Shown here: positions 659 through 30,556 of the stretch, in pieces | Position numbering within the stretch: position 1 is the first letter of the stretch | Layout: the number at the start of each line of letters is the position of its first letter | DNA from: Porphyromonadaceae bacterium | Lineage (GTDB): Bacteria > Bacteroidota > Bacteroidia > Bacteroidales > Porphyromonadaceae | DNA: 35,563 nucleotides | NCBI GenBank assembly: GCA_030528445.1 | Contig: JAUMYV010000018.1 | Span: 1-35,563 of the forward strand | Direction of reading: 5' to 3' | Made by a program: the position numbers and the translations under genes | Notes under the pieces: model-generated | Seen by the model: the letters and a program-made list of their open reading frames with translations, nothing else | Database searches by the model: none | Told to the model about the DNA's origin: nothing

Positions 659-1243
659 TTACTTGATTGCACGATAGATGAGCTCCTCACGCTTGCGCTT
701 AGGAACATAGTGTCGCTTTGCTTCGTCACGATAGTAGCGAATATCAGCCTCAGCCTCCACATCTCTGACCTCAACCTCCTCAATAGGTTTACCTATGGCG
801 ACAATGCTAATGGGAGTAAGATATTCGGGCAGGTCAAGCATGGCGGCTATTCTCTTGGGGTCGAATGAGAGGAAAATACATGCACCAAAGCCAGACTCCA
901 CAGCCATCAGCCCGAGAGCCTCTAGCTGCAGCCCTTCATCGAATCTAGCGCTCGAAGACAAGCGCGTATCCAAGATCTGAATAACGAAAGCCGTAGGGCG
1001 CTCATCCTCATTAGGCTCTGGCCATTCAGGCAGATACCCTGCCCAAACGACAGACTGGCTGAGCGTATGGCATAGAGCATCGTCCGTCACGAGTACATAC
1101 TTGAGCGGTTGCATATTGCGTGCCGAAGCCGTGTAGCGTAGCCCCTCAATCCAAGACGACATCAGCTCTTGACTCGGACGTATCGACCGGTCGAAACGGC
1201 GGTAACTACGGTTGCGTTTAAGTAGCTCAATCAACTGCATCAT
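659..1243 (-). CDS. Nitroreductase family protein
   Basis: A protein of 194 residues with the nitroreductase fold pattern: an N-terminal NRSYRRF motif (residues 11-17) typical of the FMN phosphate-binding segment, a central SARNMQP segment, and a C-terminal IGKP followed by a charged tail. Members are FMN-dependent NAD(P)H oxidoreductases acting on nitro compounds, quinones or other acceptors; the substrate cannot be read from sequence. An ATG at 1243 was chosen because the longer reading frame runs back into the protease gene, whose stop is at 1248, and the extra residues do not resemble the family. The 4-nt gap to the protease stop suggests translational coupling. A DUF805 gene follows 17 nt after it. 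Confidence 0.8.
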   Translation of the reverse strand: MMQLIELLKRNRSYRRFDRSIRPSQELMSSWIEGLRYTASARNMQPLKYVLVTDDALCHTLSQSVVWAGYLPEWPEPNEDERPTAFVIQILDTRLSSSARFDEGLQLEALGLMAVESGFGACIFLSFDPKRIAAMLDLPEYLTPISIVAIGKPIEEVEVRDVEAEADIRYYRDEAKRHYVPKRKREELIYRAIK

Positions 1244-1247
1244 AGTT

Positions 1248-3565
1248 TTATTGATAAATGAATTTAAGCGTTCGCTTCTCTCCCTCAGCCTCAATCTGGA
1301 CAACGTAAACCCCGCCTGTGACCAAGAAATCAACTGGCACTACATACTCTGTAGCAGAAGATAGCTTCTGCTGATGCACGAGCTGTCCGCTCAAGCTATA
1401 CAGACGTAGCTGCGCTGAAGCAAACCGCTTGGGCAGGAGTACATAGAGACGAGACTGATAGTAATAGCACTGTATCTCTGCTCCGTGTAGCGCAGGGCTT
1501 GGAATAGGCAATACATTGGGGGAAGTAGGTGACTGAACTAGGAGGTCGACCCAGAGATCTCCATTACGAGGCGTCCAACCTGTTTGGTCAAGCTCAAACA
1601 TATTCCAGCTCGTAGCAGTCTTACGCTTAGCTTGATACAAGAAAGGGAAACGAATAAATTCGCTTGCGGACTTAGGGGTGAGCGTCAGCATATACGAGCC
1701 TCGACCTATTGCGGAGGGCTGAAGATCTGATAGACTTGGAACAAACAGCTCGATAGTGTCGGCGTCTAGAGTCCGATCTGAGCTACCGAAGCGGTTCTCT
1801 TGTCTATCATAACGATCGAACGTCGCAGCATTCAGCTCCGTCTCCCAAACTATTCGTCCAAGAGTCTTGCCATCGGCTAGCTCTCTGAGCTTAATATCCA
1901 TCTGAGGGAAAGATGTCTTGAGATGCTCCTCTCCACGGAATAGAAGATAGACACCAAGAGGCGTAACCTCCCCTTCTTTGAGGTTAATAACTCGGCCGAT
2001 GCCTCTAAGTTTCTCATCGGATAAAACCTGAATATCATCTTGTTTGGGAGAATTAGGCGGAAAATCGCTCAAGCGATAAACAGCATTAGAGACATGTGGG
2101 TCATAGCCCTCACACAGAGTCTTACCCGTATTGTCTGGGTCGAGGAAGGGCCTGAGGCTCATCGAATCGGTTCTCTCTACCCACGTGCGATGAATGGCGT
2201 AGTAGTGATCGCTCTCGGGTGAGGTACAGGTCGAGGCACCACCAGTGAGCGCACCAATCAAGAGACCATTCCTATCAAACAAACCCGAGCCAGAGGATCC
2301 TCCAGCCGTCGTCCCGATCTCCCAGCGCGGTATGTACCAATGCTTCTCATCCCAAGAAAGCCCGATACCTATGCTGTAGTTATCTTCTATTGCTATTGGC
2401 TCATCGGTTGTTTGGTTATATCGCTTGGTCGTTGCCAGTGGATGATGAATCCCAACGTAGGGATGTGGTGGCGTAGGGCTAATGCTCCAACCAGCAAAGC
2501 AGGCGTTGTACGCTGTGGGGATAGGCAATAGATTACCATCTACATCCTTGGGCAAACCTGTGATGCGGAGCAGTGCCATATCGGCCTCGGGGTTATAGGC
2601 GACTAGTTCTGCTCCACTAAGCGTCATCTCCTCCGTCCCTCGTATGTTACCATTGGTCTTTTGGCTCTGGAAGCCAAAGAAGAAAACCGTCGTCTTGGCT
2701 TCTTGTTTGATTGCCTCTATATCATCAAGTTCATAGAGACGATTGACGTTGTGAGCCGCTGTAAGGACGTAAGCCGTGCCATCACCTCGCAAATTATTGA
2801 TTAGTGTACCTGTGCTATATAGACCGCCATTGACTACCTGCAGAAGCGTAGCTCGCGATTGTCTATTCCACTCGGGGAATGCCACGACATTGCGCGCGCA
2901 GTCTAGCTTAGGGAGCGCATTGCGGTTGTGATCAAATATCGGCTCTCCAGCAATTGCACTGCGTATGGCCTGAGCACGCATACCTAGAAAATCGTGGTGT
3001 AGCTTATCAATAACAAAAGGAACGATGCGTGCCCCTCTAGGAGGACATTCGTACTCTAGAGTAATCTGTTCGCCCTGTACGGGGGCTAAGCTGAGCAGCC
3101 CGTCGGGGTTATTATTGGCATCGGTAAAAGCTCCTCGCCTAAGCCTGTCTGCTCCGTAGATATATAGGGCTGCATCCTTGGGTAAATGGTACTGGCGTAG
3201 GGTTAACCCAATCCCCTTTGCATTGGGACTTGTGATGGTGCATCTCCACGTGTAGCAACCCCTATCATCAATCAGCCACTCACCACAGCTCTCTGGCGAT
3301 AGGTTTAGATCTCTACTCACAGCGAAGCGAAGCACACGAAACGCCTGCTCTCGCGAGGTCTCCTGTGGCAAATCCTGCTCGCAGAGCTCTGGCAAGCGAA
3401 GATGTACCACAGACTCCCCCCCCCCTGGCTATTTGCTGCGACAGCTCTCATTTCGATGCCACTAGAGCTTCGCGCGGGACGGTGTACCGAGTACTGCCCC
3501 GTGGCTTGATAGACAAACCCTAGAGATAGTAATAGTATAAAAATCTGCCTAAACCTATTCATCAT
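1248..3565 (-). CDS. T9SS-secreted trypsin-like protease (lysyl endopeptidase-like), frame broken at a G10 tract
   Basis: Two overlapping frames together encode one secreted serine protease. The first (from about 3565) gives a signal peptide (MNRFRQIFILLLSLGF, cleavage near ATGQ) and runs to AANSQGGG. The second (1248-3410) carries the protease: TAAH with His at 2753-2751, EADMALL (candidate Asp) and GGSSGSG (candidate nucleophile Ser), in the order His-Asp-Ser of family S1 as in lysyl endopeptidases. The last 80 or so residues (LYSLSGQLVHQQ, then a GGVYVVQI strand) match a type A type IX sorting domain. The frames meet at ten Gs; upstream of the tract the protease frame has a TAG. With 8 or 11 Gs they would join as SQGGGESVVHL or one Gly shorter. 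As sequenced, translation from the signal peptide ends at 3317. Either a phase-OFF gene or a tract-length error. Confidence 0.82.
3416..3425 (-). repeat. Poly-G tract (G10 on coding strand) inside the protease gene
   Basis: Ten consecutive Cs on the plus strand, ten Gs in the coding direction, lie about 50 codons into the protease gene. No other homopolymer this long was noticed in the window; the next C runs are six long. Tracts of this length are typical slipped-strand mispairing sites. Confidence 0.9.
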
Positions 3566-27832: not shown

Positions 27833-30556
27833 TTAGAATGAGAACTTAACCCCCATATAGCCAGAGCGTGGCATCGTAGGGCCATAGATGTAGCCGCTAT
27901 CGCGGTCTGAGCCAAAGTCGAAGTCGTTCTGGAAAGCTCCGAAGAGGTTATTCAGCCCACAATAGACTTGTACCTTCGTCCTAGCAAACATCCGGAAGTC
28001 GTAGGAGATGCGTGCACCCATATCGAAGAATGATGGCGTATGCACAAGTTCATCCCACTGAGGTGCAGCGCTCTTGGCTTCGCCTCCCTCCATGACAGGA
28101 GCACCCTTCTCATCTACTAGACCAACCATGAAGCCCTGCTTACGCTTGCCTGCAACGATTGCTTCTCTATCCGTTACGGCAGAGTTCTGCCCCCAGACAA
28201 CGGCGTGTGGTGCCCACATACGGCCTGTGTATGTACCAGTCAGCGAGATATTCAGAGGCTTGATTGGGTTGATGCCAATGGTAAAGTAACCATAGAGCGA
28301 TGGTGTGCGCAGGATTTCCTTGCTCGTCATAGAGATCGTCTGAGCCTCGGAGTCTTCTGCCTCAGTCACAAACTCACTACCATCAGCCTTAGGCACATAG
28401 TCTAGGTACTGCTCTTCCTTATCAAGACCCTTAATCTTGTGTCGAGTCCCCCACTCTTGGTTGGCATCGTACTTATTGCTCGTTAGGGTCAGACCTGCCT
28501 GTACCTGTAGCCAGCGATAGGCAACCTTAGCCTCTAGGTTAGCCCCCATAACGGTAGCACCAGAGCTCACGATCTTGCCTGCATCATCCAGCCCATGGTT
28601 GGAGCGGCGGAAGTAAGTGATCCCATTCTCAGTATTGATCTTGTGGTTGGTAAAGACATCAAGCAGACGGGTATAGAAACCTTCGACAAGCACATTGAGC
28701 TGGGTCTCTGCTCCTAGGCGGAAGTACATATCGTTACTTAGGCTGAAGGCATGTGAGATCTCGGGACGGAGGTTATCGTCATTAACCACACGAGTAGCCT
28801 CTCCATTCACAACCCCTACATGTAGGTCTTCATCGAAGACCTGTGGTGCGCGGAAGCCCTTGGCGTATGTCGCACGTAGGTTAATGTTCTTCGTTGGGTT
28901 GAAGCGCACTGTAGCACGAGGGCTAAGAATCATATCCTTGACAGCAGAGTTCTGGTCGAGGCGTGCCCCTAGCAAGAAGCTCCACATATCATTCTTCCAC
29001 TCAATCTGTGCAAATTGGCTCGCATTGCGAATAGTCTGATTGATTGGCTCGGACAGAGACTTACCACCATACTTACCCTCGATCCAGTTCTCCGTGTACC
29101 ACTGACGAATAGGCATCACGTCCGATAAATCGTCATGTGTGTACTCGGCACCTACGAGTAACTGGGCAGGCATAAAGAATAGCTTCTCGAAGTCGTACGT
29201 ATACTGCAATCCACCGACATAGGTACGTCCACTAGTAAGCCCATAGTTAAGACCATAGTCTGATGGATGGATTGGGTAGCCAACGCGACCGCCGAGAATC
29301 GTCTTACCGCCAATCTTGATCTCGTTGCCATCTTTGTCCTTGGCTTTAGGTTCGCCAATGCCACCATAGTAGCTTTCTCGTCGTACAGCCTGTCCAGAGG
29401 CATAGACCTGTAGATGATGCTTGTAGCTCTCCGAGAAGAGATCGAACTTGATATTCCCACTATATACAGAGTGCTTAGTCGCTTCACGCACTGCAGCCAC
29501 ATGATCTGGCCAGTTTAGATGATCACCTCCTCGACGGTCCTCGTGGAAGGTATGTACCTCTGCCGTCAGTTTGGTCAAATCGCTAGGGCGGATGTAGGCA
29601 CGTCCGCCTAGGGCACGAGAGTCGAGACGACCAAGCTCTGTATAGTTATCGCCATTGACATCGTGACCTCTGCGGAAGCGAGACTGCCCAAAGACCATAG
29701 CTCCTGCGCGGTTGTCTTCACTTACGACAGAAGCATTGAAGCCTAGATTGTTGTCTAACGATTTGAAGCCCGTCATACCGAGAGATTCATTGACCATAAC
29801 GCTATTGTTTACTGGTTCCTTGGTGATTACGTTGACCACACCAGCGATAGCCGAAGAACCAAAAAGAGCTGAGCCTCCACCTCGAACGACTTCTACGCGC
29901 TCGATCATATTAGCGGGGATTTGCTCTAGACCATACACCCCAGCCAATGCACTCATCACGGGGCGGCTGTCAATGAGGATTTGGGAGTAACGACCATCTA
30001 GCCCGTTGATGCGCACCTGATTGAAGCCACAGTTCTGGCAGTTATTCTCCACGCGGACACCAGGTTGGAAAATCAAGCCTTGAGCCAGGTTTGTAGCATT
30101 AGCCTGCTCAAATGTTTTGCCGTCCACGACATTCACAAGCGTAGGGGCAAGGCGTCGCAGAGTGTTCTGTCGGTTGGAAGAAACAACGACTTCGTCTAGA
30201 CGAATGTCATCTTGAATAGCTTCGAAGTTGATTTCGATGGTGCGATTCTTCTCGATGACCACCACCCTCTCTTGGCTCTTATAGCCGAGCCCATGCATAA
30301 CCAAAGTGATTTTTCCAGGCTTTAGATGCTTGAGGTAATAGTGTCCAGTCGCGTCGGTAGCTGTCCCGAAGGTCGTGCCTTTGATTCCAATCGTGACGCC
30401 AGAGAGATGCTCTCCTGTTTTCTTGTCAATCACATGTCCAATGACATTGGCATCGGTGGTTTGATGCTTTCGCTACTCGATAGGCTCAGCCTTAATAACA
30501 GCCATTGGACTGACTGCTAGGTGTGCTAGCAGAAGTAATAGGTACTTACGATCCAT
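27833..30556 (-). CDS. TonB-dependent outer membrane receptor with an in-frame amber codon after the signal peptide
   Basis: From ATG 30556 the frame reads a signal peptide (MDRKYLLLLLAHLAVSPMAV), then EPIE, a TAG at 30475-30473, and continues in the same frame into RKHQTTDANVIGHVIDKKTGE and the rest. A carboxypeptidase-like domain (about 35-110), a plug domain (VVDGKTFEQANATNLAQGL, with NCQNCGF near 165), RVEVVRGGGSALFGSSAIAGVVNVITKEP and a beta barrel ending GYMGVKFSF follow. It is a TonB-powered importer, perhaps of metal or cofactor complexes (ligand unknown). Only one stop breaks an otherwise intact 907-codon frame, so it may be a recent mutation, sequencing error or poorly read leader; a GTG at 30433 could start the rest but would lack a signal peptide. 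Confidence 0.88.

What the first reader, a model, noticed from the sequence alone, without database searches (positions are those of the whole stretch)
1248..3565. Secreted protease gene looks phase-variable through a G10 tract
The signal peptide and the catalytic plus T9SS sorting parts of one protease lie in two frames that meet exactly at ten Gs. Counts of 8 or 11 Gs restore a single frame (GGG-GAG-TCT), while 10 does not. Long homopolymers inside the start of a surface or secreted gene are classical slipped-strand switches. If real, it would switch a type IX secreted, trypsin-like enzyme on and off. Tract-length sequencing error is the main alternative.
Basis: partly seen in the sequence, partly recalled or inferred. 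Interest (0 to 1): 0.78.

Follow-up and report, generated by a model that had tools for sequence, protein, structure and literature searches.

The report
Likely poly-G switch in secreted protease
A mouth-type bacterium related to gum-disease species carries a secreted protein-cutting enzyme whose gene is interrupted at a run of ten Gs, probably a random on/off switch of a kind known from other bacteria, although the switching itself has not been seen.

Summary
On the minus strand a signal-peptide piece (3426-3565) and a 721-residue piece with a trypsin-like domain and a type IX sorting tail (1248-3413) lie in different frames that meet at a G10 run (3416-3425). The host is a Porphyromonas; its nearest named relative (COT-290 OH3588) has an uninterrupted orthologue with a shorter G run there. 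The downstream piece keeps its catalytic motifs and has no internal stop (dN/dS 0.056 against that relative). The genome has 7 G/C runs of 10 or more against about 2 expected. Of its 7 coding runs of 9 or more, 5 lie in surface-sugar genes. Four of 18 coding runs of 8 or more sit at frame changes: this protease, two glycosyltransferases, an acyltransferase. Runs of 10 or more occur in 24 of 26 genomes of the genus; two related genomes have them at two shared sites with different lengths. Slipped-strand phase variation is the best reading (0.57); recent decay and a tract-length error remain open, because no reads or second isolate of this species could be examined. It works like the meningococcal poly-C protease NalP, behind another secretion system: a new member of a known kind.

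The parts
3426..3565 (-). Upstream piece: start codon, signal-peptide-like stretch and linker up to the tract
   Evidence: Translation; matches the N-terminus of the sister orthologue
3416..3425 (-). G10 run where the two frames meet
3317..3565 (-). What is read as the sequence stands: 82 residues and a stop
1248..3413 (-). Downstream piece, 721 residues and a stop: rest of the protease; first possible start a GTG at 3408-3410
   Evidence: 81% identical to the sister orthologue
2253..2813 (-). Trypsin_2 peptidase domain (residues 201-387 of the downstream piece) with His, Asp and Ser motifs at residues 221, 278 and 374 (assignment of the catalytic Ser recalled from the family)
1254..1421 (-). 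Type IX secretion type A sorting tail (residues 665-720)
   Evidence: TIGR04183
3602..5224 (-). Upstream neighbour, glycogen-synthase-like gene, 36 bases away on the same strand
   Evidence: same order in the sister
659..1240 (-). Downstream neighbour, nitroreductase-family gene, 4-7 bases away depending on its start codon
   Evidence: same order in the sister

Best explanation
A translational phase-variation locus. Slipped-strand mispairing at the G10 run, in a variable linker between the export signal and the enzyme, changes the run length, so that some cells make the whole type IX secreted protease and others only a short peptide. The sequenced consensus is in an off state. Shown: the two frames, the tract, the kept domains, and many long G runs in surface genes of this genome and of the genus. 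Inferred: slippage at this site, reversibility, and that the off state is temporary.
For: The two pieces meet at the longest class of G run in the genome. Downstream piece without internal stop, catalytic motifs kept, dN/dS 0.056 over 719 codons against the sister. 7 runs of 10 or more against about 2 expected. 5 of the 7 coding runs of 9 or more lie in glycosyltransferase, phosphoethanolamine-transferase-like and PseF-like genes. Three other genes break at G runs: a GT4 and a DXD glycosyltransferase at G10 and an acyltransferase at G8. In relatives, a type I specificity gene is split at a C13 and a DNA methylase frame changes at a C10. Two sites shared by G025 and G010 differ in length, 13/14 and 12/10. 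The tract is above the poly-G/C cut-offs used for Neisseria (9, PMC5953494, passages) and Campylobacter (7, PMC6321876, passages).
Against: No reads and no second isolate of the species. The long run is private to this genome: 0 of 22 orthologues has 7 or more Gs there. Breaks grow with run length, 3 of 5 coding runs of 10, 0 of 2 of 9, 1 of 11 of 8 (for the protease), which slippage and length error predict alike. The orthologue of G021 is also split, over a G7, and a TonB receptor gene in this window has a stop behind its signal peptide, so plain gene loss happens here too. In relatives most long runs are outside genes, 47 of 57 by a crude rule, unlike this one. The dN/dS value mostly reflects time before the long tract arose.
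Confidence: 0.57

Rival explanations
1. Recent inactivation: the gene lost its frame through a slippage event and is becoming a pseudogene; the run is only where it broke.
For: Long run absent in 22 orthologues; the G021 orthologue is split over a G7 and L027 is shortened; another surface gene in the window, a TonB receptor, has a stop just behind its signal peptide.
Against: A single lesion in the gene, motifs and tail kept. G10 is longer than a random break point would need, and other surface genes of the genome carry runs as long.
Confidence: 0.22
2. Tract-length error in the assembly: the true run has another length and the gene is in one frame.
For: Draft of 134 contigs of unknown sequencing method; 3 of 5 coding runs of 10 are at frame changes, close to the two thirds that random lengths would give; one contig ends at a C10-A-C8 stretch.
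Against: 12 of 13 coding runs of 8 or 9 are in uninterrupted frames, so homopolymer error is not general. This does not decide the matter for runs of 10.
Confidence: 0.15
3. Programmed slippage of RNA polymerase or ribosome at the run yields some full-length protease from every cell.
For: Homopolymer runs can be slippery for polymerases and ribosomes (PMC3711429, passages, said there of poly-A/T).
Against: The sister orthologue is in one frame without a long run, and no conserved frame change at this site was seen among 22 orthologues.
Confidence: 0.06

Closest known systems
NalP of Neisseria meningitidis, phase-variable secreted serine protease (PMC3723659, passages)
   Same: A secreted serine protease gene with a G/C homopolymer in the coding sequence whose length sets the frame
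   Different: NalP is an autotransporter (type V) and its length variation and off/on states were checked in isolates and by immunoblot; here type IX secretion, another genus, one sequence, no variation data; homology between the two was not tested
Poly-G phasomes of Campylobacter and Neisseria (PMC6321876, PMC5953494, passages)
   Same: Runs of 9-10 G in several surface and sugar genes of one genome
   Different: Here only about ten runs of 9 or more per genome, and variation is not measured; in the relatives most runs lie outside ORFs
Lysyl endopeptidases such as Achromobacter protease I (4nsy, 4nsv, 1arb)
   Same: Peptidase region aligned over residues 189-439 with His, Asp and Ser motifs
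   Different: Remote match (best E 2.1e-11); cleavage specificity not tested; type IX tail added
[quoted passage not shown] gingivalis (PMC5690328, part 1 of 2)
   Same: Phase variation reported in the same genus
   Different: Said there to resemble the pneumococcal system; no homopolymer is named in the part I read

Membership tests
Slipped-strand phase-variable gene | Homopolymer of a length known to be unstable inside the coding sequence | tested here: met
   G10 at 3416-3425; cut-offs 9 and 7 in PMC5953494 and PMC6321876
Slipped-strand phase-variable gene | Run length decides the reading frame of a kept gene | tested here: met
   Two frames meet at the run; domains and motifs kept on both sides
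Slipped-strand phase-variable gene | Run length varies between cells or isolates of the species | not testable with these tools
   One genome per species held; no reads
Slipped-strand phase-variable gene | Reversible change of expression | not testable with these tools
   Needs an assay
Type IX secretion type A cargo | N-terminal signal peptide and C-terminal type A sorting domain | tested here: met
   TIGR04183 above its cut-off, Pfam tail model below its cut-off; signal peptide judged by eye; the two are in different frames in this sequence
Trypsin-like (Trypsin_2) serine peptidase | Domain above its cut-off with His, Asp, Ser motifs | tested here: met
   30 bits against 27.6; motifs aligned with 22 orthologues
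Lysyl endopeptidase | Cleavage after lysine | not testable with these tools
   Only sequence similarity to solved lysyl endopeptidases

The most novel reading that the evidence does not exclude
Porphyromonas runs a genus-wide poly-G contingency system that covers surface sugars, outer membrane proteins, DNA methylation and type IX cargo, much of it at sites outside genes that could be promoters; in this species it disconnects a secreted protease from its export signal, so that populations are standing mixtures of protease producers and non-producers.
Probability: 0.35. Interest if true: 0.72.

Novelty: new member of a known kind. Interest (0 to 1): 0.5.

Why it matters
Phase-variable secreted proteases are known from Neisseria. 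A poly-G switch on type IX cargo in Porphyromonas would mean that one clone can be a mixture of enzyme producers and non-producers, that annotations miss such genes as frameshifted, and that strain comparisons of secreted enzymes in this genus need tract lengths. My ten paper searches listed no paper whose title or shown abstract start describes homopolymer phase variation in Porphyromonas; the library holds open-licence papers only, and searches listed 20 of 72 and 20 of 143 papers.

Tried and rejected
General homopolymer error: tested by asking whether coding G8 to G10 runs elsewhere in the genome are in uninterrupted frames. 14 of 18 are (the protease). It is rejected for runs of 8 and 9 (12 of 13 uninterrupted) but not for runs of 10 (2 of 5).

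A tract conserved among orthologues was sought in 22 orthologues and not found at this place. A G10 in the G017 orthologue (codon 701, frame open) and a C8 in the G009 orthologue (codon 696) were seen; with several such runs per genome, one G10 among 22 orthologues is not surprising and I do not use it as support. My first orthologue script read ten minus-strand loci in the wrong orientation and was replaced. The shortened orthologue L027 was not followed up. Structure prediction, fold search, tRNA, repeat, RNA-family and phage/plasmid searches were not used.

Left out of the relatives' tract count: runs near contig ends in G004, G014 and G022 (C12, C14), and all runs of G002, G008, G013, G017, G018 and G019, which were not fetched. 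One run at a contig end (L108) and one beside a stretch of N (L137) were kept in.

Full report
Observation. On the minus strand of the window an ATG at 3565 opens a frame with a signal-peptide-like start, reaches a run of ten Gs at 3416-3425 and, as the sequence stands, ends after 82 residues. In another frame, from the tract on, 721 residues run without a stop to 1248. They hold a Trypsin_2 domain (E 9.9e-7) and a type IX type A sorting tail by TIGR04183 (28.5 bits, cut-off 23); Pfam's version of the tail scores below its cut-off (17.9 against 27). The nearest solved structures are lysyl endopeptidases, best E 2.1e-11.

Host and orthologues. The window lies in an unnamed 2.27 Mb draft of 134 contigs. 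The only named relative found is Porphyromonas sp. COT-290 OH3588, a strain from a dog's mouth sequenced on Illumina (PMC4392144, whole text). Its protease is 81% identical and uninterrupted (782 residues stop to stop) with a shorter G run at the same place. Six genes around the protease, from the DUF805 gene to the DtxR-FeoA gene, keep their order there. 23 of 26 genomes of the genus, this one included, have an orthologue at E 1e-80 or better. Of the 22 others, 20 have frames of 765 to 877 residues stop to stop and 2 are shorter, 679 (L027) and 538 (L031). L031, from the single-contig genome G021, continues in another frame, and the two frames overlap over a G7 run. None of the 22 has 7 or more Gs at the place of our tract; one (L029) has C7 near there.

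Is the downstream piece kept? Over 719 codons against the sister, dN is 0.111, dS 1.97 (near saturation) and the ratio 0.056. The His, Asp and Ser motifs line up with those of the 22 orthologues; L015 differs at the Asp position and L021 next to the Ser. Most of this divergence is older than the long tract, so it shows that the gene mattered, not that it still does.

Tracts in the same genome. Runs of 8 or more G or C number 23: 13 of length 8, 3 of 9, 6 of 10 and 1 of 11 (counted by hand). From the decay of shorter runs 1.7 to 2.2 runs of 10 or more are expected and 7 occur (P 0.002 to 0.007). I judge 7 of the 10 runs of 9 or more to be coding: two GT4-type glycosyltransferases (C23, C58), a phosphoethanolamine-transferase-like gene (C72), an HU-like gene (C77), a DXD glycosyltransferase and a PseF-like cytidylyltransferase gene (both C121), and this protease. 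The 11 coding runs of 8 lie in two acyltransferases, an outer membrane barrel, a DUF5074 gene that looks like a lipoprotein, a solute-binding protein, and housekeeping or phage genes such as FtsA, aldolase, MurB, TrkA, an oxaloacetate decarboxylase subunit and a tape measure. The contrast is suggestive only: glycan or LPS genes 5 of 7 against 2 of 11, two-sided P 0.049; surface or secreted genes 6 of 7 against 4 of 11, P 0.066. I chose the classes after seeing the data.

Frame changes at tracts. Of these 18 coding runs 14 lie in uninterrupted frames and 4 at frame changes. The four are this protease; the DXD glycosyltransferase, whose domain begins just behind its G10 in a frame that lacks an early start codon; the GT4 gene on C23, whose domain stops short at its G10 while a 48-residue glycosyltransferase-like end lies in another frame (that end judged by eye); and an acyltransferase on C6, whose C-terminal part lies in another frame behind its G8 and matches the end of the same Pfam model weakly, below its cut-off (E 0.0047). 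By length, 3 of 5 runs of 10, 0 of 2 of 9 and 1 of 11 of 8 are at frame changes. All four genes are secreted or surface-related. The pattern speaks against homopolymer error at lengths 8 and 9; at length 10 it fits slippage and length error alike.

The genus. 24 of 26 genomes of the genus have at least one run of 10 or more; in a wider set, these 26 included, 44 of 61 do. Of 57 runs in fetched loci of relatives 10 lie inside an ORF of 100 or more residues by a crude longest-ORF rule and 47 do not. Coding examples include a type I specificity gene split at a C13 and an outer membrane barrel with a G11 about 17 residues from its start, both in G012, and in G009 a DNA methylase frame with a C10 near its end and 143 further residues open in another frame. 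DNA methyltransferases and specificity genes are classic poly-G loci (the former named in PMC3711429, passages; the latter recalled). Other coding runs fall in an aminotransferase, a bPH_2 protein and a protein without a Pfam match. In G025 and G010 two tracts share their flanks but differ in length, 13 against 14 and 12 against 10; none of these four lies in a long gene. By its size G025 matches my memory of P. gingivalis ATCC 33277; no call names it.

Mechanism. The most likely reading is translational phase variation by slippage at the G run, in a variable linker between export signal and enzyme. The off form is a short peptide. A start at the GTG just behind the tract would give an enzyme without a signal peptide, which I think would not be exported (inference). 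The neighbours on the same strand are 36 bases upstream and 4 to 7 bases downstream, so an operon is possible but was not tested.

Known relatives. NalP of the meningococcus is a secreted serine protease with a poly-C tract of 6 to 15 bases, its states checked by immunoblot (PMC3723659, passages). Poly-G/C cut-offs in use are 9 or more for Neisseria (PMC5953494, passages) and 7 or more for Campylobacter (PMC6321876, passages). A genome note reports phase-variable type I systems in P. gingivalis (PMC5690328, part 1 of 2). Passages of a review of P. gingivalis regulation mention phase variation only in general terms (PMC9862357), and those of a phase-variation review name no Porphyromonas locus (PMC11868660). 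The finding works like NalP; whether the two proteins are homologous was not tested.

Verdict.

Noticed in passing
window 27833-30556, minus strand: TonB-dependent receptor gene with an in-frame stop just behind its signal peptide; the sister genome has no stop at that place but its copy is broken elsewhere (two frames and one internal stop).
   Followed up: partly
L083:2382-3334 (G000:C121): DXD-type glycosyltransferase gene whose frame changes at a G10, next to a PseF-like gene with a G9 in an uninterrupted frame and a GT52-type gene: a sugar cluster with two long runs.
   Followed up: partly
L071:1483-2660 (G000:C23): GT4-type glycosyltransferase whose domain stops short at a G10, with a glycosyltransferase-like end in another frame.
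   Followed up: partly
L069:1423-2645 (G000:C6): Acyltransferase gene whose C-terminal part lies in another frame behind a G8.
   Followed up: partly
L078:1538-3331 (G000:C72): Phosphoethanolamine-transferase-like gene with a G9 inside an uninterrupted frame.
   Followed up: no
L091:1907-3087; L140:2375-4012; L092:2448-5000: In relatives: a type I specificity gene split at a C13, a DNA methylase frame with a C10 near its end, and an outer membrane barrel with a G11 near its start.
   Followed up: partly
L103:2464 / L121:2527 and L104:2491 / L120:2410: Two sites outside long genes with the same flanks in two related genomes and different run lengths, 13/14 and 12/10.
   Followed up: partly
L086-L141: In relatives 47 of 57 long G/C runs lie outside ORFs by a crude rule; which promoters they might affect was not examined.
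   Followed up: no
L083:10062-10080 (end of G000:C121): The contig ends 12 bases behind a C10-A-C8 stretch, as if the run had stopped the assembly.
   Followed up: no
L031:2711-2817 (G021): The protease orthologue of a single-contig genome is split in two frames that overlap over a G7.
   Followed up: partly
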